Shown: positions 40,065 through 60,054 of the stretch, in pieces
Layout: every line of letters begins with the position of its first letter
Numbering within the stretch: the first letter of the stretch is position 1
Source of the DNA: a bacterium HR10
Lineage (GTDB): Bacteria; Acidobacteriota; Blastocatellia; HR10
Assembly (NCBI GenBank): GCA_002923315.1
Contig: BEHM01000018.1
Location: 1 to 64,000 of the forward strand
Length of the DNA: 64,000 nucleotides
Direction of reading: 5' to 3'
Made by a program: the position numbers and the translations under genes
Notes under the pieces: generated by a model
Seen by the model: only the letters and a program-made list of their open reading frames with translations
What the model was told of the DNA's origin: nothing
Databases searched by the model: none

Positions 40065-40094
40065 TTGACAGCCAACGCCGCGCCTCCCTACAAT
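40065..40094 (+). promoter_or_regulatory. Strong promoter overlapping the SLC13 start
   Basis: A perfect TTGACA (40065) and TACAAT (40089) are 18 nt apart. The -10 contains the first bases of the ATG at 40093. Confidence 0.55.
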
Positions 40095-41658
40095 GGCGCG
40101 CGTGAGCGCGGAGCGAGCGGCGGCGTTCGAGCGCGCGCGTTCGGGGATCGGCTTCTTCGCTGGTCCCCTGGTGTTTCTTCTCGTCCTCCTGCTGCCGACG
40201 CCCTCGGCCTTCTGGCGCGAAGCCGAGGCGCTCGTCGCCACATCGCCGGAGGTCGCGCAGCTCGCCTTCGGCATGAAGGTGACGCTCGCGCTGCTTCTGC
40301 TCATGGTCATCTGGTGGGTGACCGAAGCCGTCCCCATCCCCGTCACCGCATTGCTCCCTGGCCTCATCCTCCCGGTCTTTCAGGTCGTCGGCGTTCAGGG
40401 GGGGCAGGTGGTGGAGCTGAACGCTCGCGCCGTGCTCGCTCATTATGCCAATCCCGTGATCTTCCTCTTCCTCTCCGGATTCCTGATCGCAGGCGCCATG
40501 CAGAAATGGGGGGTGGATCGGCGCATCGCCCTCTGGATCTTGACGCGCGGACGCGCGGCCAAGAGTCCCGATCGGGTCCTGCTCAGCCTGATGGGGGCCT
40601 CGGCCTTCATCTCCATGTGGGTCTCCAATACGGCGACGACGGCCATGATGCTGCCGATCGGTTTGGGCGTGCTCTCGCGCGTGCGCGGCGCGTCCTCGAA
40701 CTACGCGCGGGCGATGCTGTTGGGCATCGCCTATGCGGCCTCCATCGGCGGTGTGGGGACGATCATCGGGACGCCGCCCAATGGCATCGCCGTCTCCATT
40801 CTCCGGCAGCAGAACATCGCGCAGCTCCATTTCCTGGAGTGGATGAGCTTCGGCGTCCCCTTCGTCCTCGTGGGCGTTCCGCTGGCCTGGCTCGTGCTGC
40901 GCGCGCTCTTCCCCTGCGACGTCACCTTCGATGAGGGGGTCGGCGCGCTCCTGCGTGAGGAGCGAGCGGCATTGGGGCCGTGGGGGCGAGGCGAGAAGCT
41001 GACGCTCGTGGGATTCCTTCTGGCCGTGACGCTCTGGACGACCACCCCCGTCTGGTCGCTCATCCCCGAGATCGGTCGCCGATTGTCTGGGCTCGATGAG
41101 CACCTGATCGCTCTGGGCGCCGCGATCCTCCTTTTCCTCCTGCCGGTGGATTGGTCCTCACGACGGTTCGTCCTGCAGTGGGAGGATTCCCGCTATGTGG
41201 ACTGGGGGACGCTGCTGCTGTTCGGCGGAGGGATCGCGCTCTCCGATGCCATGTTCAAAACGGGATTGGCGCGCGTGCTCGCCTCGGAATTCGTGACGCT
41301 CTTTGGGAAGCCGGTCCCGCTGGTGCTCGTCCTCCTGGTGGTGATCTTCATGGAGCTGCTCACCGAGGTGACCTCGAATACGGCGGTCACCTCGATGATG
41401 GTGCCGATTCTGATCTCGATGGCTTCGGGGTTGGGCGCCGATGCCCTCTCGCTCGTCCTCCCGGCGACGATCGCGGCCTCGATGGCCTTCATGCTCCCGG
41501 TGGCGACGCCGCCGAATGCGCTCGTCTACGCGACGCGGCGCGTGGCGATCGCCGATATGCTGCGCGCGGGCATCGTCCTGGACCTGGTCGCCTGGCTCTA
41601 CATCGTCGCGTTCTTCTACGGCTATGTCTCTGTGGTCCTCGGGCTCGTCCGCTTCTGA
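40093..41658 (+). CDS. SLC13/DASS-family anion symporter
   Basis: A 521-residue inner-membrane carrier with about twelve hydrophobic segments, related to sodium/dicarboxylate and sodium/sulfate symporters. The two substrate/sodium-binding SNT motifs of the inverted repeats are SNTATTAMMLPI (about residue 180) and SNTAVTSMMVPI (about residue 430). IGTPPNGIA and VATPPNALVY are the paired helical hairpin tips. The ligand (succinate, malate, sulfate or other) is not decided by sequence alone. The promoter overlaps the ATG, so GTG 40102 may be the real first codon. Confidence 0.9.
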   Translation: MARVSAERAAAFERARSGIGFFAGPLVFLLVLLLPTPSAFWREAEALVATSPEVAQLAFGMKVTLALLLLMVIWWVTEAVPIPVTALLPGLILPVFQVVGVQGGQVVELNARAVLAHYANPVIFLFLSGFLIAGAMQKWGVDRRIALWILTRGRAAKSPDRVLLSLMGASAFISMWVSNTATTAMMLPIGLGVLSRVRGASSNYARAMLLGIAYAASIGGVGTIIGTPPNGIAVSILRQQNIAQLHFLEWMSFGVPFVLVGVPLAWLVLRALFPCDVTFDEGVGALLREERAALGPWGRGEKLTLVGFLLAVTLWTTTPVWSLIPEIGRRLSGLDEHLIALGAAILLFLLPVDWSSRRFVLQWEDSRYVDWGTLLLFGGGIALSDAMFKTGLARVLASEFVTLFGKPVPLVLVLLVVIFMELLTEVTSNTAVTSMMVPILISMASGLGADALSLVLPATIAASMAFMLPVATPPNALVYATRRVAIADMLRAGIVLDLVAWLYIVAFFYGYVSVVLGLVRF

Positions 41659-46072: not shown

Positions 46073-47230
46073 TCACCTCCTGGCCCTCTCGACCTCCCGA
46101 TCGTTCACGCTCGGGGTGGGTGGTGCGATCCCCTCCGCCTCCTCCCCCCGCGAGTGCCACAGCGGGTCGGTCTGCGCGCGAATCTGCTCCTTCAGGCGCG
46201 CGTAGCCCTCGGCGAGGATCGCCTTCTGCTCCTCGGTGAGCGCGGGCGTGCCGGGCGCCACATGATCGCTCGCGATGATCCCCTCCCGATAAAGCGCATG
46301 TTTCATGCCGGCGATGAGCTTGAAGACCGGCCGCCCGCTCTCCCAGAAGGTGCAGAGGCGTTCGAACGCCCCAAGCAGCGACCGATAGCGGGACATGAGC
46401 GGCTCATCGCCCGCCGCGCAGACGCGCCATGCCTTCTGCCATTCGCGGGGGAAGACGTTCGCCGGACCCGCGACGACGCCGATCGGCAGAGCGTGATGCA
46501 GGAGGTAGAGGTTCCAGGACTCGCGAAGCTTTCCCAGAAGACCACGCGTGGGCCGGAAGAGATCGAAGATGAGCATCGCTTCGCCCACGTAGATCCCGAA
46601 GGCGCCTCGCTCGTTGAAATGCAGCGCCGCTTTCGTGTAGTGGCCGAGCACGCGGCGCGGGGCGGTGACCTTGATCCCGCGAACGTAGGGGAGGCGACTG
46701 AGCCGCTTCACATCGCGCGTGCGGATGTGGGGGATCGTGGGGTGAACGGCGATCTCCGCGTTGTCATAGAGGAGCAACGGCAGCTCCCTCCCTTTCCGTT
46801 CAAAGAGCGGCGTCACCTCGCGATGGAAGAAGGTCACGACGTCGCCGATGTCCTCGATCGAGAGCGGGGCGATCACCCCCGCATCCGCACCCAGCTCCAG
46901 CGCCCGCTCCAGGCCGACTCGTGTTTCGGCGCGCGTTCGCCCCGTCACCCCCACCCACACTTCGATCGGGGGCCGTCCCAAACGACGGAGGTGCTCGTTG
47001 ATCGTCCGTCGCTCATCGAGAGCGACGGCGATGAGCCGTTCCCGTTGCTCCATGGGGATTCGGTTCCATTCGCCCGTCGTCCCCAGGATGAAGAGAACAT
47101 CCGCCCCGAACCCCGATTGGACGAGGTAACGCAGGAGGCGTCGCTGATCGGCATCCAGCAGGCGCCCCTCCTCGTCCAGGATCGTGAGGACGGGGATGCT
47201 CAACCCTCCTCGCGGGCGATCGTCCTTCAT
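46073..47230 (-). CDS. DapA-like (dihydrodipicolinate synthase family) lyase
   Basis: A 385-residue protein of the DHDPS/N-acetylneuraminate lyase family, a class I aldolase fold. The Tyr in ELPLLLYDNAE and the Schiff-base Lys in VRGIKVTAP correspond to family catalytic residues. GTTGEW, near residue 50, is the substrate-carboxylate loop. It is about 90 residues longer than DapA, with a C-terminal helical tail of unknown use. Without the other lysine genes it may act on a sugar acid or other keto acid. It begins 72 nt after the NUDIX gene and is followed 13 nt later by khtT. Confidence 0.8.
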   Translation of the reverse strand: MKDDRPRGGLSIPVLTILDEEGRLLDADQRRLLRYLVQSGFGADVLFILGTTGEWNRIPMEQRERLIAVALDERRTINEHLRRLGRPPIEVWVGVTGRTRAETRVGLERALELGADAGVIAPLSIEDIGDVVTFFHREVTPLFERKGRELPLLLYDNAEIAVHPTIPHIRTRDVKRLSRLPYVRGIKVTAPRRVLGHYTKAALHFNERGAFGIYVGEAMLIFDLFRPTRGLLGKLRESWNLYLLHHALPIGVVAGPANVFPREWQKAWRVCAAGDEPLMSRYRSLLGAFERLCTFWESGRPVFKLIAGMKHALYREGIIASDHVAPGTPALTEEQKAILAEGYARLKEQIRAQTDPLWHSRGEEAEGIAPPTPSVNDREVERARR

Positions 47231-50347: not shown

Positions 50348-52990
50348 TCAGTGTGCGGCGAGCACGCGCAGAGCGAAGGGCAGACCGTAGGCGTGCGTCC
50401 AGCCGAAGACCCGCAGCCCGTGCGTGAAGCTCCATAGGGGACGACTGCCATCGGGATTGCGCGGGAGGTGACTCGCCTTCTCCAAGGCGAGGAACAGTTC
50501 GCGTTGCGTCCAGGTGTCATCAATCGGGCGAGGGAGCGGATCCATCCTCATGACCTCAAGGCGTCGCCGCAATTCTTCCAGGAAGCTGGGCTCGCCCGTC
50601 AGGTCGTAGCCCACGACGAGGCTGTGAATCGTCGCCAGGTAGGATTCCATCCCATGGCTGAGCGGGGGGACATCGCGCACGCGTCGCGCGTGACGCACGA
50701 GCGCGGCGCGCACGGCTCGGTCTGCCGTGAGATCGAGATATCGCGCCAACGCATACGAGGCGTAGTTTTGAGCGTACCCGTAACGATCCATGACCAGACT
50801 CCCCCCCTGCTCGCGCTCTTGCCACATGAGCATGCGCGCGATTCGTTCTCTCAACTCGCGATGATAGCGTTCGTCCTGGGTCGCTTCCCACACCTCGAGC
50901 AGATTCCACACTGAGAGATAGAGCCGACGCCCGGTGAGATCATGCTCCCCCCAGATGCGTTTCAAATACGTCTCCGCCGTTTGAAGAGCCACGTCCAGGC
51001 CGCGATGGTACCCGGCCACGTAATAGCTCGCGATCCATCCGGCCACCCAGACGTGCGCGCTCAGGGCGCGCGACCAGTGCTGCATGCCGTGTCGGCGCCC
51101 GATGCCGAGGTACTTCGTCCCCGGCGGCCGTTTGAGCGTCTCCCAGAAGTCGAGCGCCGAGTTCGTGTCCCCGTAGTACTTCGGATCGGTCGGCCAGTGC
51201 GTGTTATCCACGTCCATGGAATGGCGGCTCGCTGCCTCCGCGGCCAGATGAAAGCGGCGATCCCCCGTGCGGAGAAAATGGAGCCAGAGCATGAAGTCCA
51301 CGGCCGGCTCGTTGCACACCCAGACGTCCCACTTCTCGCCGTCGAAGTTCCACTTCCCATCGCCGTAGTCGAACATCCCGAACCAGGGCACCCATCGCTG
51401 GTTGAAGAGCCACCACTCGAATTTATAGTCGAGGGCGCGCTCGAGTTCGGGGAAGCGTTCTGCGCGCGGAGCGAAGCGCCCGTAGACGCCGCTCTCGGCG
51501 TACCAGCTCGGATCGGCGTGCGCGATCGGCGGATCCAGGACGTAGCTCATCGTGCGCGCGATCTCTTCCGCAGAGGTGTCGCCTGTGTGGAAGTAGAAGA
51601 TCAACTCACTCGTCTTCGCCAACCCCTGTGCCCAGTTCTCCACCGTTCCCTCGGAACCATCCTCATACTCCAGCTCGCTCGACCAGCGGGCGAAGGTCAT
51701 CGGTTCGACGCGCGGCGACCAGAGGAACGCCGTCAGGCGATCCGGCGCTTCCCAGCGGATCTCCTTCGGGTATTCTTCGAGGAAATGTCGAATCCCGATG
51801 GCGAGGCCCCATCGGTCATCCGCGAGGCTCAGCCATCCATCGGCGCGCTCCGCCCGAACGAGCGTTCGGTCGTCCACATCGAGGTGCGCGAAGAAGCCCT
51901 CCAGTCGCCGATCCGGCGTGGATTCGGGAACGGGAGGCATGCGGGTCGGTTTCGGCCCGGATTGCAGCAATGAGACCTGACGCGCCGCCGGTATCGGGCG
52001 CGCGAGCACGCGGCGGGTGCCCTCTTGCCACCATCGGCCCTCGCGATAGGCCGTCTGCAGCCGTCGCCGTGGCGAGAGGTTCACCTGGAGCGCCAGACCA
52101 GCGGCCGCGATGCGATCATTCGGTTGCGTCCATCCGGGATCGCCCGGCTCCTCCCGACGGATCCGCTCGCCCTGCGTGGCGACGTGCGCGTGTTCCCCCT
52201 CCTGCGGTCGGTGGTGATCGGGAACGCCCGTATAGACGAACGTGTGGAGGACGCGAAGATACGGCTTCCCCGCATAGGCATGAAGGCGCATCACGAAGGG
52301 GGCCGGATGGTTATCGGCGCGCGCGTAGCGGTATTCGCCCTCAATGCGCACGATGGCGTGGAGCGGTCCCGACCCCTTCTCGACGACCGTGCGCGTGATG
52401 AAAGCACGCGAGGGATCCAGGCCCGCATCGTCGAGGAGATCGAGGAACGATCCGCGTCCGACCGGCCCTTCAGCGATCACATCCGACTCCTCGAATCCGT
52501 TGCCCTCGAGATCCAGGTGCACGCGATGCAGAAATCCTCCTTCGCCTTTTCGCACGAGGACGCGCAGCGGTCCCGTCGTCACTTCGACGAATCCGCGCTC
52601 CCCTTGATTGTTCACGACGCTCACGCGCGCGTCTCCAGATGCGGTGCGTCGAACTCCGGGGCCGTACTCGACGAAGTACTCGGTGGCGGCCTCGGCGAAG
52701 AAGAAGACCCAAGCCCATCTCACGCTCTCATCAGCCGGCTCCCACGTGCTCACCTCCGTGATCTGCGAGGGGATCTCGCGACCATCTGGCGTGAGGACGC
52801 GCACGTGATCGGGCGAACGCAGGGCGCCTTTGGGGAAAGGGAGGCCGAAGAGAATGGGCGCCCCCTCCTGCGGCCGCTCGATGCGGATACGCACGCGCTG
52901 GGCGATCGGTGCGGGACGGATCGGTGATCCGTCCATGAGGCCCGCGCGCGCCTGAGCAAGGATGAGGATCGCCGAGATCCAGACCCTCAT
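50348..52990 (-). CDS. PcRGLX/YetA-like polysaccharide lyase (PL26-like)
   Basis: An 880-residue exported protein. After a signal peptide (about residues 1-17), an N-terminal RIFT-barrel-like domain and a central part with WAWVFFFAEAATEYFVEYGPG lead to a C-terminal alpha/alpha-toroid (about 500-860, with SWYAESGVYGRFAPR, YGDTNSALDFW and RYGYAQNYASYALARYL). This domain plan matches the PcRGLX/YetA family, founded on exo-rhamnogalacturonan lyase (PL26), so the enzyme probably removes uronic-acid-containing units from an acidic glycan. The exact bond cannot be assigned. It is the last gene of the ROK-TonB-PIG-L run, 10 nt after the deacetylase. Confidence 0.8.
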   Translation of the reverse strand: MRVWISAILILAQARAGLMDGSPIRPAPIAQRVRIRIERPQEGAPILFGLPFPKGALRSPDHVRVLTPDGREIPSQITEVSTWEPADESVRWAWVFFFAEAATEYFVEYGPGVRRTASGDARVSVVNNQGERGFVEVTTGPLRVLVRKGEGGFLHRVHLDLEGNGFEESDVIAEGPVGRGSFLDLLDDAGLDPSRAFITRTVVEKGSGPLHAIVRIEGEYRYARADNHPAPFVMRLHAYAGKPYLRVLHTFVYTGVPDHHRPQEGEHAHVATQGERIRREEPGDPGWTQPNDRIAAAGLALQVNLSPRRRLQTAYREGRWWQEGTRRVLARPIPAARQVSLLQSGPKPTRMPPVPESTPDRRLEGFFAHLDVDDRTLVRAERADGWLSLADDRWGLAIGIRHFLEEYPKEIRWEAPDRLTAFLWSPRVEPMTFARWSSELEYEDGSEGTVENWAQGLAKTSELIFYFHTGDTSAEEIARTMSYVLDPPIAHADPSWYAESGVYGRFAPRAERFPELERALDYKFEWWLFNQRWVPWFGMFDYGDGKWNFDGEKWDVWVCNEPAVDFMLWLHFLRTGDRRFHLAAEAASRHSMDVDNTHWPTDPKYYGDTNSALDFWETLKRPPGTKYLGIGRRHGMQHWSRALSAHVWVAGWIASYYVAGYHRGLDVALQTAETYLKRIWGEHDLTGRRLYLSVWNLLEVWEATQDERYHRELRERIARMLMWQEREQGGSLVMDRYGYAQNYASYALARYLDLTADRAVRAALVRHARRVRDVPPLSHGMESYLATIHSLVVGYDLTGEPSFLEELRRRLEVMRMDPLPRPIDDTWTQRELFLALEKASHLPRNPDGSRPLWSFTHGLRVFGWTHAYGLPFALRVLAAH

Positions 52991-53000
52991 CTCCCCCCCT

Positions 53001-55829
53001 TCAGCGTTCGGTCCGGCCCGCGTAGAGCAGATTCACGAAGAGGCGGATGGCGCCGGGCACGCCGGCCGGCAGTTGCCGAAAGAAGGCGTAACCGGTGTAA
53101 ATGTACGTGCCCGCTCCGTATCGAGCGCGCAAGAGGCCGCCCATGAGCAGCGGCTCGCCCGGATCGCGCGAAGCCAGCAGCGGCGTGAACCGCTCATCCC
53201 AGCTCTCCATGAAGTAGAGGCCACGCTCGTGCACCCATCCCTGAAAGTCGCGCTCGGCGATGCGATTCGGCCAGTGAAAGAGCCGATCCTCCGGAGCCAG
53301 GATCTCGACCGGCGCGTCCTCGACGCTCACGCGTCCGCTGCCGAGCGTCGCCGGATAAGGCGTGAATCGCCCCGCGTTGAAGGCCGCGATGTTCTGATTG
53401 TATTGCACGATGAGCGTTCCCCCGCGCTCGACGAAGTCCAGGAGCCGCCGATTGTGGTCCCGCACGTCCGATCGCACATCGTAAGCCCGGATGCCGAGGA
53501 TGATCACGTGGAAGCGATTGAGGTCCTCCCGCGCGAGCTGTTCGGCGGTGAGCAGCTCCACATCCAGTCCGAGTTGCGCGAGCACGCGCGGGATGTCGTC
53601 CCCAGCGCCCATGACGTATCCGATGCGCATCTCACCGGGCGGCACACGGACATCCACGACGTGGAGGCGAACCCGAGCCGGCTGGCAGAACGGGAACCAG
53701 CCGATCTCACGCCGTCCGAGGATCGTGCACCCTTCGCTGTATGTCCGCCCTTGATATTCGGCGATGGCCGTCACCTCATAGCGGCCTTCGCGCACATCCC
53801 CAGGCGTGAGCGTGAAGGTGACGCTCTGCACCTCCCCCTCGCGGGAGAAGTCGAGGACGCGCGCCGCGGGCTCAGCGCGCCAATCCGGCGGTGCCTCAAG
53901 ACGCAGCCTGACGCGGGCTCCGCCGATCACCTGGTTGCGCACGCTCACCGTCACCGGGATCGCTCGGGGCGCAGACGCGCTCTGAACGACGGATTCCGGG
54001 TGAACATGAACCGAGAGCGGCGGTCCGATGACGAGCGGACGGTGTTCCTCACCGTACATCGGGTCCACCACGCGCGCGCGGGGAATGGCGGCGATCTCGC
54101 CCTTCAACTCCTCGATCGCATAGATCGCGCGAACGCGCAGCGGCAACGGTGGCAGCGGAAGCGTCACATACTCCGGGACGTCAAGCCGAAGGATCGCCTC
54201 CGTCGGCGGATCCTCGCGCCGCCAGTACGGGCGCGTCCACAGGGAACGCGCGACGTCGTGAGGGAGCGTCACCTGACACTGGACGAGAGCGCTCTCATTC
54301 GGACCCAGCGACCGGAGATCGCGTCCAAGTACGGTGACGGTGAAGTCCGAGGGCGCTTCGCACCGGATGTCCTCGGCGCGCACGCGCTCACGCCCGCGGT
54401 TGACCAGGCGCGCCGTCAGCGTGAACGTCTGCCCCGGAGAGGCCACCGCGAGCGTCTCGCGCGGACGCGAGAATCCGAACGCGCCGGCTCGCTCCGCTGG
54501 GGTATCGCTTGGCGCGTCCACCAGCGCTTCGAGCGTGAGCCCGAGCGCCAGATTGATCGCACGAAGGCATTGCGCGCGCTTGGTCCGCAAGGGGACCAGG
54601 ACGTTCTGCCGCGCGGCGGGAGAGAGGGGCGCGCGCTCAAGACGCGCGATGAGATCGGTGAGCGCCGCCAGACCGCGCAGCAGGGGACGAGCGACGCGCT
54701 CCGGATGCTCAGGGGTGAGTGCGGCCATCGCTTCGGCGATGCGCTCCTCCAGCGCGCGCAAAGCGGGGCGGAGCCACGGCACCGCGCGCTCTTCCGCGCC
54801 GAGTCGCGCGGCCAGTCCGGGCAAGCTCGTGTCCAGGCCGTCGAAGAAGCTCTCCTCCCGACGATCGCCCGGTCGAGGGGATGGCACCCGCGTGGCGACG
54901 AGCCGATAGTACGCATACCGGTCTCCGGCCGGAACAACAACGCCGCCCGCTCCCTGCGTGAGCTGCAGGCTCAACCCCTTCATGGCGAGTTGCGCGTACG
55001 ATTGACCGAGCGCGGGATCATAGGCGCCCGTGTTGAGTCGCAGCACATCGCCTTCATCCGCGCGCACATTCCCCACATAGAGCTTGTACGGCGACCAGGG
55101 GAGCCATCCCGCCGCGATCTGCTCCGGGAAGCGGCGCGGATCGCCCGCCGCCTCGAATGCTTCGCGCGCGAGCAGGCCCGCGGCTTGATGCTGGCCATGC
55201 CCATCGCGGGGCGCTCCCTGAAAGCGCGCCACGATCACATCGGGGCGAAACGCGCGGATGACGCGCACCAGGTCGGCGAGCGCCGTCTCACGTCCTCGCC
55301 ATTTCTCGAAGGTCTCCTCGGCCGTTTTCGAGAAGCCGAAATCAGCGACGCGCGTGAAGCGCTGGCGCACCCCATAGTGCGCATCGGCGGAGAGCAGCTC
55401 CAGTGTGCGCAGCAGCCCCAGGGCATCGAAAAGCTCCGGCCCCGTCTTATTCTGCCCTCCCTCGCCCCGCGTGAGCGTGAGCAGCATCACCTCGGCGCCC
55501 AGACCACGCGCCAGCAGCGTGAGCATCGCACCGTCTTCGTCATCGGGATGAGCCGTCACATGCAGCACCCGCGCCGTCGTGCGCAGCTTGCGCAGCGCCT
55601 GCACAAGCCCCGCCAGACCGAGATCCTCGCTCGGCTTCGGGATGATCTCCATCCACGGCTCATCGTCCGTCTCCCACTCGGCGACTGCAGCCTCTGGCCC
55701 CCGGACGCCGAGCGCCTCCCGCGGAAACGGTCCCGCTCCAGCAAGGAGTATCGCGCCCAGGACGAGCAGAGCCACCCGCGCCCGATGAGGCCCGCGAGCC
55801 ATCGAAGCGCCGCCCGCGTTTGATCGCAT
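53001..55829 (-). CDS. Giant PIG-L family deacetylase
   Basis: A 942-residue exported protein. The signal peptide is near residues 10-40. A PIG-L/LmbE N-acetylglucosaminyl-deacetylase domain (about 80-330) has the zinc motif TAHPDDEDGAML and DGHGQHQAAG. The middle is beta-rich (two or three Ig-like domains, about 430-730). The last 210 residues resemble a ThuA/GATase-like alpha/beta domain (FHVIILGIRAYDVRSD..FVERGGTLIVQYNQN). PIG-L domains remove acetyl groups from amino sugars, so this could prepare a substrate for the neighbouring lyase. It starts at ATG 55829 next to GGGGGAGGAGG. The track start (TTG 55859) is ten residues longer. Confidence 0.88.
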   Translation of the reverse strand: MRSNAGGASMARGPHRARVALLVLGAILLAGAGPFPREALGVRGPEAAVAEWETDDEPWMEIIPKPSEDLGLAGLVQALRKLRTTARVLHVTAHPDDEDGAMLTLLARGLGAEVMLLTLTRGEGGQNKTGPELFDALGLLRTLELLSADAHYGVRQRFTRVADFGFSKTAEETFEKWRGRETALADLVRVIRAFRPDVIVARFQGAPRDGHGQHQAAGLLAREAFEAAGDPRRFPEQIAAGWLPWSPYKLYVGNVRADEGDVLRLNTGAYDPALGQSYAQLAMKGLSLQLTQGAGGVVVPAGDRYAYYRLVATRVPSPRPGDRREESFFDGLDTSLPGLAARLGAEERAVPWLRPALRALEERIAEAMAALTPEHPERVARPLLRGLAALTDLIARLERAPLSPAARQNVLVPLRTKRAQCLRAINLALGLTLEALVDAPSDTPAERAGAFGFSRPRETLAVASPGQTFTLTARLVNRGRERVRAEDIRCEAPSDFTVTVLGRDLRSLGPNESALVQCQVTLPHDVARSLWTRPYWRREDPPTEAILRLDVPEYVTLPLPPLPLRVRAIYAIEELKGEIAAIPRARVVDPMYGEEHRPLVIGPPLSVHVHPESVVQSASAPRAIPVTVSVRNQVIGGARVRLRLEAPPDWRAEPAARVLDFSREGEVQSVTFTLTPGDVREGRYEVTAIAEYQGRTYSEGCTILGRREIGWFPFCQPARVRLHVVDVRVPPGEMRIGYVMGAGDDIPRVLAQLGLDVELLTAEQLAREDLNRFHVIILGIRAYDVRSDVRDHNRRLLDFVERGGTLIVQYNQNIAAFNAGRFTPYPATLGSGRVSVEDAPVEILAPEDRLFHWPNRIAERDFQGWVHERGLYFMESWDERFTPLLASRDPGEPLLMGGLLRARYGAGTYIYTGYAFFRQLPAGVPGAIRLFVNLLYAGRTER

Positions 55830-55933
55830 CCTCCTCCCCCCTCGGAATGCCCCCTGCAAGGGAAGGCGCGGTGAGATGCCGGCATCACGTCCTCTCGCCC
55901 CAGCATCTCACCGAAGGTCTCACGCCCGCTCGT

Positions 55934-58780
55934 TCAGAAGTTGAGCTTGAAGCCGAGCTGCAGCTGCCGCGATTCGAGCGCTCCCGCGCGCGGGAACCGC
56001 TGCGGGAGGGCCGAGACCGGACTCCCATCGGCGTTCACCGCCACCGTCGTCGTCAGGTTCGTGATGTTCGGATGATTGGTCAGATTCGTGAACTCGGCGA
56101 AGAACTCCACGTTCGCGCGCTCCCCCAGCCGCACGAAGCGCGAGTATCGAAGGTCGAGGTTGAAGTGGTTCGGTCCATCCACCGTGTTGCGCCCGATGAA
56201 GAGCGGACGATCCATGAGGATGCGGTCGTTGTTGAGATCGCGATTGGCCAGGATGTTGAACGTGTCGCCGCTGTCGGCGCTCAGGATGAAGCTCACCTGA
56301 TTGTCGTTGAGCAGGGCGCTCCAGAAGCGATTCGAGAGATCCACCTTCGGCGCCAGGACGCCGTTCACGTAGAAGATGTGCCGGCGATCCGAGAGGGAGT
56401 TGCCGCGATCGCGACGCCGGTTGGTCGGGTCCGAGAGCTGGACGTTGCTGTCGAGCACATTCACCTCAGGCGCGTCGTCAATGGCGTGCGACCAGGTGTA
56501 GGAGGCGGTGAACTGATACCCGCGCGAGAAGCGCTTGATCAACTGCACGGTGACGCCATTGTAGTTGGAGTTCCCCACAGATTCGGCGAGGAAGACGTTG
56601 TCGAAGTCGGGGAAGCGTCGCGTCTGCGGATTCACCGCGGTGTCGAAGACCGGTCGCCCATCGGCCAGGGTCCGGATCGGGTTGATCGGGTTGATGTTCC
56701 GCTGCACGGGGATGCGCGTCCCCTTGGCGAAGACGTAGCTGAGGACGATGGACATCTCGTGGGTGAGCGCCCGCTCGATCTGCAGATTCGCATTGCTCGA
56801 ATAGAGGTTGGCGAAGTCCGGCGCCACGGCGTTGATGCTCACGCGCGGGAGCGGAAAGCCCGCGGGCAACTGATCGAACGTCTGTGGGAAAGCCGGCGCG
56901 AAGGGGCTCGTCCCCGAGACCGAGATGTCGCGGAAACGCGGATTCCCGTTGTTCAGGAGCGCGAGCCGATAGAAGTCGAGCTTCGGGAAGTCGTAGTAAA
57001 TCCCCGCGCTCGCCCGCACGACCGTCTTGCGCTCTCGTCCGATCCCGTACGAGAGCCCGATGCGCGGCGCGAAGTTGTTCGTGTCCACATTGAAGTCGCG
57101 CGAGAGCGGGAGCGGAGCCGTCGGATCCGGATCGGGCACGTCATACAGCTCATAGCGCACGCCGTAGAGGAGCTTGAGATTCTGCGTCACGCGCCAATCG
57201 TCCTGCCAGAAGGCTCCCCAGAAGAAGGCGCGCTCGCTGATCTGCGGATTCCCGATGCGCTGGCGGAAGGTCGTGTAGCTCCTCGGATTCGTCCCGTTGA
57301 CGGCGCTCAGGTAGGCATCAATGTTGGGGAAGACGTATTCGGCGAAGAGCGGCTCGCGCCGGAAATCGCCATAGGTCGTCATCGTGAATCCGAATTTGAA
57401 GGCATGGTTGCCGCGAATGAGCGTGACATTGTCCACGATGTCCACGCTGGTCTGGCGGAAGCGCTGGCCGTCATCGGTCGGTCCCCCGAACTGCGCCACG
57501 CCCGAGATCGTGATGGCCGGGCCGCGAACGGCGTTCTCCGGATTGGCCGTGCGGAAGAAGCGGCGTCGCGCGTACTGGAAGCGCAGCTCGTTGATGGCGC
57601 GCGCCGAGATCGTCGAGGTGAGCTGCGTCGCCACCGAGTCGGCCGCATCAATGAAATCCGTCGAGCGCGTCACCGAGAGGAGTCCGGCCGAGAGCGCCCC
57701 GCCGATGTTATTCGGCGAGCTGTTGCGGAAGAGGTTGTATCGGGCCATGAGGCGATGCCGCTCGGAGATCGTGTAATCGCTGCGCGCGATGAAGAAGTTG
57801 ACCCGTTGCGAGGCCGGGACCACGCCGGTCTGCTTCGGCGTCAGCCCGATGCGCGCCGCATTCTCCGGAGTGATGGTGATCGGGCGCGGGATGTCGCGCC
57901 GCGTGAATTCATACGCGCTGAAGTAGTGGAGCCGATCGCGTCGGATCGGACCGCCCAGTCGCGCCGTCACCGTATCGGCCGCGAAATCGGGCTTCGGCTG
58001 CGTGGGCGACAACAGCGTGGGACGCGCCGAGAAGGACTTGCGGCGGAAGCGATACCCAGCCTCCCCATGCACCTCATTCGTCCCCGAATCGGTGATGGCA
58101 TTGTAGACGGTCCCCGTCGTCGTCCCGAACTCCGGAGCGAAGCCGTTGTTGACGACCTGGATCTCGCGGATGAAGACTTCGGAGATCGGCATCAGGCGAA
58201 TGCCCGCGCGATCGGCCTGCGTGTTCGTATTGCCGTCCAGTTGGTAGTTGATCCGGTCAATGAACCCGTTCGTGTTCACCTTGCGCGGCACGCCGAATTC
58301 GGGATTGGGGCGCGCGCTCACCCCCGGCTGCAGGAGCATGAAGTTGTAGATGTTGCGCGAGACCAGGGGTAGGTTCCGCACCTCTTGCGTCGAGATCGTA
58401 TTCCCCTGCTCGATCTTCCCGATATCGGCCACAGGGACATCAGCCGTGACCGTCACCGCTTGCTCGATCTGCCCGACCTCCAGCGTGACATCCACGACGG
58501 CCGTTCGCCCAGCCGTGAGGACGACACCCGAGCGCACAGCGCGTTTGAAGCCCACAGCTTCCACGCTGATCTCATAGCGGCCCAAGGGCAGAAGCGTCGC
58601 GCGGTAAAATCCGCGCTCGTTCGTCGTCAGTGTTCGGGCATAGCCCGTGTCCATATTGACGATGCGCACGGTGGCGCCGGCGATGACCGCTCCCGAAGGG
58701 TCCAGGACGATCCCCTCGATGACGCCGTCGGTCGCCTGCGCCTGCACGAGCAGGAACATCGCCAGAACGATGCTCTTCAT
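55934..58780 (-). CDS. TonB-dependent receptor, Oar-like with N-terminal Cna/carboxypeptidase-regulatory domain
   Basis: A 948-residue outer-membrane protein. A short signal peptide (about residues 1-17) is followed by a carboxypeptidase-regulatory-like domain (IEGIVLDPSGAVIAGATVRIVN, about 20-105), a plug domain (VEVGQIEQ-VTVTADVPVAD and LPLVSRNIYNFMLLQPGVS) and a 22-strand-type barrel ending LQLGFKLNF. It imports a nutrient, probably sugar oligomers, driven by TonB. No SusD partner is present. The ROK regulator is 15 nt upstream, and the PIG-L and PL26-like genes follow, so it is the uptake part of the locus. Confidence 0.93.
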   Translation of the reverse strand: MKSIVLAMFLLVQAQATDGVIEGIVLDPSGAVIAGATVRIVNMDTGYARTLTTNERGFYRATLLPLGRYEISVEAVGFKRAVRSGVVLTAGRTAVVDVTLEVGQIEQAVTVTADVPVADIGKIEQGNTISTQEVRNLPLVSRNIYNFMLLQPGVSARPNPEFGVPRKVNTNGFIDRINYQLDGNTNTQADRAGIRLMPISEVFIREIQVVNNGFAPEFGTTTGTVYNAITDSGTNEVHGEAGYRFRRKSFSARPTLLSPTQPKPDFAADTVTARLGGPIRRDRLHYFSAYEFTRRDIPRPITITPENAARIGLTPKQTGVVPASQRVNFFIARSDYTISERHRLMARYNLFRNSSPNNIGGALSAGLLSVTRSTDFIDAADSVATQLTSTISARAINELRFQYARRRFFRTANPENAVRGPAITISGVAQFGGPTDDGQRFRQTSVDIVDNVTLIRGNHAFKFGFTMTTYGDFRREPLFAEYVFPNIDAYLSAVNGTNPRSYTTFRQRIGNPQISERAFFWGAFWQDDWRVTQNLKLLYGVRYELYDVPDPDPTAPLPLSRDFNVDTNNFAPRIGLSYGIGRERKTVVRASAGIYYDFPKLDFYRLALLNNGNPRFRDISVSGTSPFAPAFPQTFDQLPAGFPLPRVSINAVAPDFANLYSSNANLQIERALTHEMSIVLSYVFAKGTRIPVQRNINPINPIRTLADGRPVFDTAVNPQTRRFPDFDNVFLAESVGNSNYNGVTVQLIKRFSRGYQFTASYTWSHAIDDAPEVNVLDSNVQLSDPTNRRRDRGNSLSDRRHIFYVNGVLAPKVDLSNRFWSALLNDNQVSFILSADSGDTFNILANRDLNNDRILMDRPLFIGRNTVDGPNHFNLDLRYSRFVRLGERANVEFFAEFTNLTNHPNITNLTTTVAVNADGSPVSALPQRFPRAGALESRQLQLGFKLNF

Positions 58781-58795
58781 AGCCCCCTCCTTTCG

Positions 58796-60010
58796 TTAAA
58801 GCCGCGCGACCACATCGGCGAGTTGTCGTTCGACCAGTTGCAACGCCGAGAAGATCGCCCCATAGAGTTGCGCGCGATCCTCCAGGGCCGAGACGACGAC
58901 CGCCGGTTTGGCCGGAACAGTTCGCGCGATGGTCTCCCGAATGGGCTCGGTGAGAAGCTCTCCCGCCAGGCTCACGCCTCCCCCGAGCACGATCATCTCC
59001 GGATCCAGGAGCGTGGCCACATTCGCCACAGCCGCGCTGAGATAGGCTGCGATTTCATCCACGAGCCGTCGGGCCGTCTCGTCACCTCGACGGGCCGCGT
59101 CGAAGACGGCCTTGGCGTCCAGGGCACGGGATCGCCCCATGAGCTGGCGGGCGCGCGCCGCCATCGCCGGTCCGGAGGCGCGCATCTCCAGAAATCCCAG
59201 CTCGCGGAATTCCTCGCACGTCGCCTTCGGATCCAGAAGCATGTATCCGACTTCTCCAGCGGCGTGCGTCGAGCCACGATAGAGTTCCCCGTTGATGAGC
59301 AGGCCCGCTCCGATTCCCGCGCCGATGGCGATGAAGGCGACATTTCGGAGCCCGCGCGCGGCTCCGCGCCAGCTCTCGCCCAGCACGGCCATGTTCACGT
59401 CGTTATCCACGTGGACGGGGAGGCGCAGTGCGCTCTCCATCAACTCGCGGAGCGGGACGTCGCGCCAGCCCGGGAGATTCGGGGCGTGACGAACGATCCC
59501 GCGCTCCACGTCGGTGATGCCGGGAGCGCCGATGGCCAACAGTCGCACCTCACGCCAACGCACGCCGGCCGTCTTCACCACCTGACGGCTGAGCGTCGCG
59601 ATCTGCTCGACGACAGTGCGGACATAGGGCGGAGACTTTCGCGTCGGCTCCTCCGCGTGCGCGAGGAGTTCGCCGTTGAGATCGGCCACCGCGACGCGCA
59701 CGCGCGTCCCTCCGATGTCGGCGCCGAGCACATACCCGAAGCGCGCGTTGAAGCGCAGCAGCGTCGGGCGACGCCCACCGCTGGAGTCCCCGACGCCCTC
59801 TTCTCGCAAGAGTCCCGCGCGCAGCAGCTTCGCCACCAGGGCCGAGACCGTCGGCGGACTCAGCCCCGAACGGCGCGCCAACTCGGCGCGCGAGATCACC
59901 TCCGATGCGCGCGCCAGCCGCAACAGCGCGAGCATGTTCAGTTGCTTGAGGAGTCCGTGATTGGCCGGACCCATCGCCTCCGCCGCCCGCTTGTGCCCGT
60001 GCCCATCCAT
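58796..60010 (-). CDS. ROK-family transcriptional regulator
   Basis: A 404-residue repressor. The N-terminal winged helix (RAELARRSGLSPPTVSALVAKLL, about 35-57) is followed by a ROK sugar-kinase fold with DIGGTRVRVAVADLNG and VDNDVNMAVLGE. The zinc motif of ROK proteins (CxCGxxGCxE) is lost: the segment reads ATCEEFRELGFLEM, and the His of GEIGHM is Tyr. A sugar derepresses such proteins. I start at ATG 60010 because upstream ATGs (60049, 60028) lie inside the promoter. The TonB gene follows after 15 nt; rimO is divergent. Confidence 0.9.
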   Translation of the reverse strand: MDGHGHKRAAEAMGPANHGLLKQLNMLALLRLARASEVISRAELARRSGLSPPTVSALVAKLLRAGLLREEGVGDSSGGRRPTLLRFNARFGYVLGADIGGTRVRVAVADLNGELLAHAEEPTRKSPPYVRTVVEQIATLSRQVVKTAGVRWREVRLLAIGAPGITDVERGIVRHAPNLPGWRDVPLRELMESALRLPVHVDNDVNMAVLGESWRGAARGLRNVAFIAIGAGIGAGLLINGELYRGSTHAAGEVGYMLLDPKATCEEFRELGFLEMRASGPAMAARARQLMGRSRALDAKAVFDAARRGDETARRLVDEIAAYLSAAVANVATLLDPEMIVLGGGVSLAGELLTEPIRETIARTVPAKPAVVVSALEDRAQLYGAIFSALQLVERQLADVVARL

Positions 60011-60015
60011 GACTT

Positions 60016-60054
60016 TGTTCGGGAACATAATAAACTTCTCCTCGCCCATGTCAA
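60016..60054 (-). promoter_or_regulatory. ROK-TonB operon promoter with operator-like dyad
   Basis: On the minus strand TTGACA (60054-60049) and TATTAT (60032-60027) are 16 nt apart. The dyad TGTTC-gg-GAACA (60016-60027) covers the start point and touches the -10, as an autoregulatory ROK operator would. Confidence 0.5.

What the first reader, a model, noticed from the sequence alone, without database searches (positions are those of the whole stretch)
50348..60010. SusD-less glycan locus: ROK regulator, TonB receptor, PIG-L deacetylase and PL26-like lyase
Four minus-strand genes with gaps of 15, 104 and 10 nt combine a sugar-responsive repressor, an Oar-like outer-membrane importer, an amino-sugar deacetylase and a lyase-like protein. 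Together they suggest uptake and breakdown of an acetylated uronic-acid or amino-sugar polymer. The absence of SusD sets this apart from Bacteroidetes PULs.
Basis: partly seen in the sequence, partly recalled or inferred. Interest (0 to 1): 0.7.

Follow-up and report, generated by a model that had tools for sequence, protein, structure and literature searches.

The report
Amino-sugar uptake and breakdown gene cluster
Four adjacent genes in a hot-spring-type Acidobacteriota genome belong to a gene set, kept together across distantly related bacteria, that most likely imports an N-acetylated, acidic sugar compound, removes the acetyl group and splits it with a pectin-lyase-like enzyme, and no description of this set turned up in the papers searched.

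Summary
The four minus-strand genes are real: ROK regulator (58796-60010), SusD-less TonB receptor (55934-58780), secreted PIG-L deacetylase (53001-55829) and PcRGLX/PL26-like protein (50348-52990). The set recurs, so its first refutation condition is not met. All four genes are in every species of the genus with enough flank. In Balneolota, Bacteroidota and Rhodothermota the same lyase sits, mostly in SusC-SusD loci, with PIG-L, a ROK kinase, a sugar MFS and a DASS anion symporter. PIG-L is beside the lyase in 33 of 41 non-redundant loci.

The amino-sugar half of the reading gains support: PIG-L keeps its zinc site, linked ROKs keep kinase motifs, and NagB-type GlcN6P deaminases occur in several loci. 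The rhamnogalacturonan/uronate half does not: no pectin gene families turned up, GH88/105 is absent here and in most carriers, and the PL26 tyrosine mutated in a PDB complex is absent in all 50 homologues.

Best reading: import, de-N-acetylation, then cleavage by a PL26-fold enzyme into glucosamine plus an organic anion. The substrate is unknown. SusD absence is a difference of importer, not of pathway.

The parts
58796..60010 (-). ROK-family protein with N-terminal winged HTH (404 aa). Keeps DxGGT and NDxN kinase motifs, lacks the Zn Cys motif, ExGH changed to ExGY
55934..58780 (-). Oar-like TonB-dependent receptor (948 aa), CarboxypepD_reg + OMP_b-brl_4, no SusD partner
   Evidence: 92-95% identical across the genus
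53001..55829 (-). Secreted PIG-L/LmbE metal deacetylase with two NEW3 stretches; likely start ATG at 55829; H104, D106, D107 and H224 (numbering from the TTG start at 55859) invariant
   Evidence: fold match to MshB and diacetylchitobiose deacetylase
50348..52990 (-). PcRGLX/PL26-fold protein (880 aa) with signal-like N-terminus; putative carbon-oxygen lyase
60027..60054 (-). Sigma70-like promoter TTGACA-16-TATTAT upstream of the ROK gene
60014..60029 (-). Inverted repeat TGTTC-CC-GAACA between the -10 box and the ROK start; candidate ROK operator (inference)
40093..41658 (+). DASS/SLC13 sodium:anion symporter (521 aa), 70% identical to the one adjacent to the lyase in the sister genus; functionally linked, not in the operon

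Best explanation
An inducible scavenging locus for an acidic glycoconjugate that carries an N-acetylated amino sugar. (1) The TonB receptor brings the compound into the periplasm. (2) PIG-L removes the N-acetyl group, giving a glucosamine-type residue. (3) The PL26-fold enzyme cuts the bond between the amino sugar and its acidic partner, probably by beta-elimination. (4) Glucosamine enters the cytoplasm, is phosphorylated (ROK kinase in the relatives) and deaminated by NagB; the acidic product enters through the DASS symporter. (5) In this genus the ROK protein carries an HTH and most likely represses the operon at the promoter/inverted repeat until it binds the sugar. Shown: gene order, conservation, intact PIG-L and ROK motifs, PL26 fold, co-occurrence. 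Inferred: order of reactions, glucosamine as the sugar, the anion, beta-elimination, autoregulation.
For: Full-length lyase orthologues (47-57% identity) in Acidobacteriota, Balneolota, Bacteroidota and Rhodothermota, in two well-supported clades. Among 47 loci with enough flank: PIG-L in 38, outer-membrane receptor in 38, ROK in 35, SusD in 30, SLC13 in 27, MFS in 25. PIG-L beside the lyase in 33 of 41 non-redundant loci versus about 0.03 expected per locus, binomial p about 4e-44 (loci share ancestry, so this overstates independence). In the order of Rhodohalobacter, close PIG-L homologues are in 26 of 30 lyase genomes and 11 of 99 others, Fisher p 1e-14. Two Vicinamibacteria have one PIG-L in the whole genome, and it is the one next to the lyase. 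One clade uses long PIG-L, TBDR and ROK-HTH; the other uses short PIG-L, SusCD and ROK kinase, so the same functions are met by different proteins. NagB-PIG-L fusions above the nagB cut-off lie in several loci. The short PIG-L is nearest to diacetylchitobiose deacetylase among solved structures. None of the linked ROKs has the Zn Cys motif and, where the motif could be read, all but one (G059) have lost the ExGH His; the six unlinked ROKs compared from the same genomes keep it. Listeria NanK, an amino-sugar kinase, also has Tyr there and no Zn cysteines (PMC5458393).
Against: Four Balneolales genomes have the whole locus but no close PIG-L homologue, so deacetylation is not obligatory. Several Vicinamibacteria lyases have none of the partners. 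The sister genus splits the set into TBDR-PIG-L and lyase-SLC13. No MFS, ROK kinase or NagB lies beside this window's operon. Oar-like receptors are so abundant (77 matches in this genome) that receptor adjacency alone says little. DASS presence is only weakly associated (27 of 30 versus 57 of 99). The lyase model is poor in the conserved cleft region.
Confidence: 0.58

Rival explanations
1. One reading: a locus for a uronic-acid polysaccharide such as rhamnogalacturonan or a heparosan-like glycan. The PL26-like protein is an exo-lyase giving unsaturated uronides and PIG-L trims acetyl groups.
For: Fold and three-domain architecture of PcRGLX. PL26 is the only solved relative. A heparosan-like polymer would explain both an acid and GlcNAc.
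Against: GH88/105, which opens unsaturated uronyl oligosaccharides, not found in G000, its relatives and most carriers. No pectin GH, PL, rhamnose or KDG-type families seen in the flanks annotated. The tyrosine mutated in the 5xqo complex is V/I/L in 46 and Tyr in none of 50 homologues.
Confidence: 0.17
2. A small-molecule glycoside scavenging system: an amino sugar joined to a hydroxy-acid, for example a GlcN-malate (bacillithiol-type) or lactyl/glyceryl amino sugar. The PL26-fold enzyme eliminates the acid and DASS or LctP imports it.
For: No glycoside hydrolase is a constant partner. An anion transporter is: DASS in most loci of the Bacteroidota/Balneolota clade, and in one Chitinophagaceae locus LctP plus glycerate 2-kinase. 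The best NCBIfam match of the short PIG-L is BshB1, below cut-off.
Against: SusCD/TonB import is unusual for such small molecules. BshB1 is only the nearest family, and diacetylchitobiose deacetylase is nearest in the PDB. No direct evidence for the acid.
Confidence: 0.12
3. The four genes are an accidental neighbourhood: an Oar-like receptor family so common that it lands beside anything, with unrelated enzymes.
For: 77 receptor-family matches in a 3.1 Mb genome. The gene set is partly split in the sister genus.
Against: The same companions recur around the lyase in different phyla with non-orthologous versions of each function. Tight gaps and one conserved promoter.
Confidence: 0.05

Closest known systems
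PcRGLX, PL26 exo-rhamnogalacturonan lyase (PDB 5xq3, 5xqg, 5xqj, 5xqo)
   Same: Three PcRGLX Pfam domains in the same order; full-length fold match (E 1e-27, TM about 0.65, 17% identity)
   Different: Tyrosine altered in 5xqo absent in all 50 homologues; no rhamnogalacturonan genes nearby; GH88/105 usually absent from the genome
Bacteroidetes SusC-SusD polysaccharide utilization loci
   Same: Outer-membrane importer, exported enzymes and inner-membrane transporters in one locus; orthologous lyase loci in Balneolota/Bacteroidota are of this type
   Different: Here the importer is an Oar-like TonB receptor without SusD, the linked regulator is a ROK-HTH rather than an ECF sigma/anti-sigma pair, and there is no constant glycoside hydrolase
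Deacetylate-then-cleave amino-sugar pathways (archaeal diacetylchitobiose deacetylase followed by a glucosaminidase; recalled, not tested)
   Same: A deacetylase of the same PIG-L family prepares an amino sugar for cleavage
   Different: The cleaving enzyme here is PL26-fold, not a glycoside hydrolase
NanK-type ROK kinases without zinc site (F. nucleatum and Listeria NanK, PMC5458393)
   Same: DxGxT and catalytic Asp kept, Cys zinc motif lost; Tyr in place of the ExGH His as in Listeria NanK
   Different: The window protein carries an N-terminal HTH; substrate unknown

Membership tests
PL26 polysaccharide lyase | PcRGLX domain architecture (1st, 2nd, 3rd) and fold | tested here: met
PL26 polysaccharide lyase | Tyrosine mutated to Phe in the PcRGLX substrate complex 5xqo (presumed catalytic) | tested here: not met
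   the aligned column is V/I/L in 46 of 50 and Tyr in none; alignment there is of moderate confidence and the residue's role was not verified in a paper
PL26 polysaccharide lyase | Exo-rhamnogalacturonan lyase activity | not testable with these tools
   needs assay
Rhamnogalacturonan or uronate utilization locus | GH88/105 to process unsaturated uronides | tested here: not met
   no match in G000 (87.5% complete) and 14 of 21 carriers in all; matches over cut-off in 6 carriers
SusC-SusD polysaccharide utilization locus | Adjacent SusC and SusD | tested here: not met
   no SusD in the operon; met in Balneolota/Bacteroidota relatives
PIG-L/LmbE metal deacetylase | AHPDD motif plus downstream zinc His | tested here: met
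   H104, D106, D107, H224 invariant in 11 homologues; ligand pattern as in PMC4101496
PIG-L/LmbE metal deacetylase | De-N-acetylation of a GlcNAc moiety | not testable with these tools
   needs assay
ROK repressor/kinase | HTH plus ROK domain | tested here: met
ROK repressor/kinase | DxGxT and catalytic Asp | tested here: met
ROK repressor/kinase | ExGH and CxCGxxGCxE zinc motif | tested here: not met
   Zn-less members are known (PMC5458393), so this does not exclude the family
TonB-dependent transporter, Oar-like | CarboxypepD_reg N-domain and outer-membrane barrel | tested here: met
   (OMP_b-brl_4 370 bits; no separate Plug match)

The most novel reading that the evidence does not exclude
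The lyases of these loci form a new enzymatic class with a PL26 fold that does not act on uronic acids. It eliminates an organic acid (for example malate as fumarate) from a de-N-acetylated glucosamine conjugate, so the locus is a dedicated scavenging pathway for amino-sugar/hydroxy-acid glycosides of the bacillithiol or muramyl type.
Probability: 0.1. Interest if true: 0.8.

Novelty: new variant of a known kind. Interest (0 to 1): 0.47.

Why it matters
It defines a recurrent gene set of unknown substrate, kept across at least three phyla with non-orthologous importers, deacetylases and ROK proteins, around a PL26-fold subfamily that lacks the tyrosine altered in the one solved PL26 substrate complex. 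Testing one lyase with its PIG-L partner would show what PL26-fold enzymes do outside pectin, and which amino-sugar compound these hot-spring, saline and marine bacteria live on.

Tried and rejected
Rhamnogalacturonan locus: rejected as the leading idea after the GH88/105 and neighbour checks. A locus confined to one genus: rejected. Literature searches for PL26 with PIG-L/CE14 loci, PcRGLX mechanism, bacillithiol breakdown and SusD-less Acidobacteria loci gave nothing on this gene set; the library lacks most subscription papers. NTP-transferase and GlmS beside the Balneolales loci were not used as evidence because they may be housekeeping neighbours. DUF5916, 2-hydroxyacid dehydrogenase and fucosidase occur in few loci and were not used. 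High conservation of the receptor (92-93% versus 75-84% for its neighbours, with raised fourfold-site identity) could be expression-linked codon bias or recent homogenisation; not resolved.

Full report
Observation. The four ORFs exist as described. Pfam assigns ROK with winged HTH, CarboxypepD_reg plus OMP_b-brl_4, PIG-L plus NEW3, and all three PcRGLX domains. Choosing the PIG-L start with a Shine-Dalgarno sequence gives exactly the quoted gaps of 15, 104 and 10 nt. rimO upstream and a prepilin peptidase downstream, in the other orientation, delimit the operon. A TTGACA-16-TATTAT promoter unique in the window precedes the ROK gene, followed by the inverted repeat TGTTC-CC-GAACA. The promoter boxes and the GAACAAAGTC half-site are conserved in the other species of the genus, the left arm less so.

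Distribution. The genome is a 3.1 Mb Acidobacteriota assembly with one PcRGLX protein. Its lyase is present in all six genomes of the family, in 9 of 396 sampled Acidobacteriota, in 31 of 129 genomes of the order of Rhodohalobacter, one of these a distant match, and in 7 of 351 of the family of Flagellimonas. Named loci add Vicinamibacteria, Balneolaceae, Salinivenus and Chitinophagaceae. A maximum-likelihood tree separates an Acidobacteriota clade from a Bacteroidota/Balneolota/Rhodothermota clade with full support. The family is therefore old and patchily kept.

Co-occurrence. Within the genus the order ROK-TBDR-PIG-L-lyase is fixed. Three Vicinamibacteria-type loci have TBDR-lyase-PIG-L-MFS; G059 has lyase-PIG-L-ROK; the sister genus has TBDR-PIG-L on one contig and lyase-SLC13 on another. 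The other clade has, typically, SusC-SusD-PIG-L-MFS-ROK kinase-lyase-SLC13, often preceded by an ECF sigma and anti-sigma gene (the sigma labels are from sequence similarity within these loci, not from a profile search). Counts over 47 loci with enough flank: PIG-L 38, receptor 38, ROK 35, SusD 30, SLC13 27, MFS 25. After reduction to 41 lyases under 90% identity, 33 have PIG-L nearby; PIG-L numbers 1 to 10 per genome. Presence/absence over 129 genomes agrees: 26 of 30 against 11 of 99. The window holds the SLC13 orthologue of the sister genus at 40093-41658.

Function of the parts. PIG-L keeps all zinc and base residues (PMC4101496) and its model matches MshB and diacetylchitobiose deacetylase. 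The relatives' short PIG-L matches diacetylchitobiose deacetylase best among solved chains and BshB1 best, but below cut-off, in NCBIfam. The linked ROKs keep DxGxT and the catalytic Asp, lack the zinc Cys motif and, except in G059, have lost the ExGH His; the unlinked ROKs compared from the same genomes keep ExGH. Zn-less NanK proteins, one with Tyr at that His, are known (PMC5458393). NagB-PIG-L fusion proteins, over the nagB cut-off, lie in several of the loci: in L109 directly downstream of the lyase and in L087 and L088 directly upstream of PIG-L. Together these point to glucosamine as the sugar that is used. The SLC13/DASS symporter, replaced in one locus by LctP with a glycerate 2-kinase, points to an anion as the other product.

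The lyase. Its predicted fold is that of PcRGLX over the full length, and more than 100 positions are invariant or nearly so in 50 homologues, so it is very probably an active enzyme. The tyrosine that differs between 5xqo and wild-type PcRGLX aligns to V/I/L here in 46 of 50 and to Tyr in none. The cleft region of the model is of low confidence, so the replacing residue is not identified. GH88/105, needed for unsaturated uronide products, was not found in this genome and in 14 of 21 carriers in all.

Mechanism and limits. I commit to import, de-N-acetylation, and cleavage into glucosamine and an anion, with ROK control. Shown are gene content, order, motifs, fold and co-occurrence. Inferred are the substrate, the reaction type, the order of reactions and the regulation. 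Deacetylation is not universal, since four Balneolales genomes have the locus without a close PIG-L homologue. SusD absence is real, but it marks a different importer on a shared pathway. The co-occurrence p-values treat loci as independent although many share ancestry; the recurrence in two deep clades with different proteins for the same roles is the stronger argument.

Noticed in passing
window 40093-41658 (+): DASS/SLC13 gene, 70% identical to the one adjacent to the lyase in the sister genus; in two other species of the genus the DASS matches lie on other contigs than the lyase.
   Followed up: yes
window 55934-58780 (-): The receptor is 92-93% identical between species while its operon neighbours are 75-84%, with raised fourfold-site identity too.
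   Followed up: partly
whole genome G000: OMP_b-brl_4 receptors are strongly expanded: 77 matches in 3.1 Mb.
   Followed up: no
window 46073-47230 (-): Divergent DHDPS/NanA-family aldolase (33 bits), about 3 kb from the lyase; role unknown.
   Followed up: no
L097, L098, L100, L101: Balneolales loci with SusC-SusD-MFS-ROK-lyase-SLC13 but no close PIG-L homologue anywhere in the genome.
   Followed up: partly
L109, L112: Lyase gene interrupted by a stop (G657) or split in two frames (G833) in Flavobacteriaceae.
   Followed up: no
L024: Contig titled Acidimicrobiia (VFZF01000002) matches a genome grouped here with Acidobacteriota (G139 and G403 give identical places).
   Followed up: partly
L017: Chitinophagaceae locus adds two Gfo/Idh/MocA enzymes, a TIM-barrel isomerase, lactonase, LctP and glycerate 2-kinase around the lyase; a TIM-barrel isomerase also lies upstream of the receptor in L028.
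   Followed up: no
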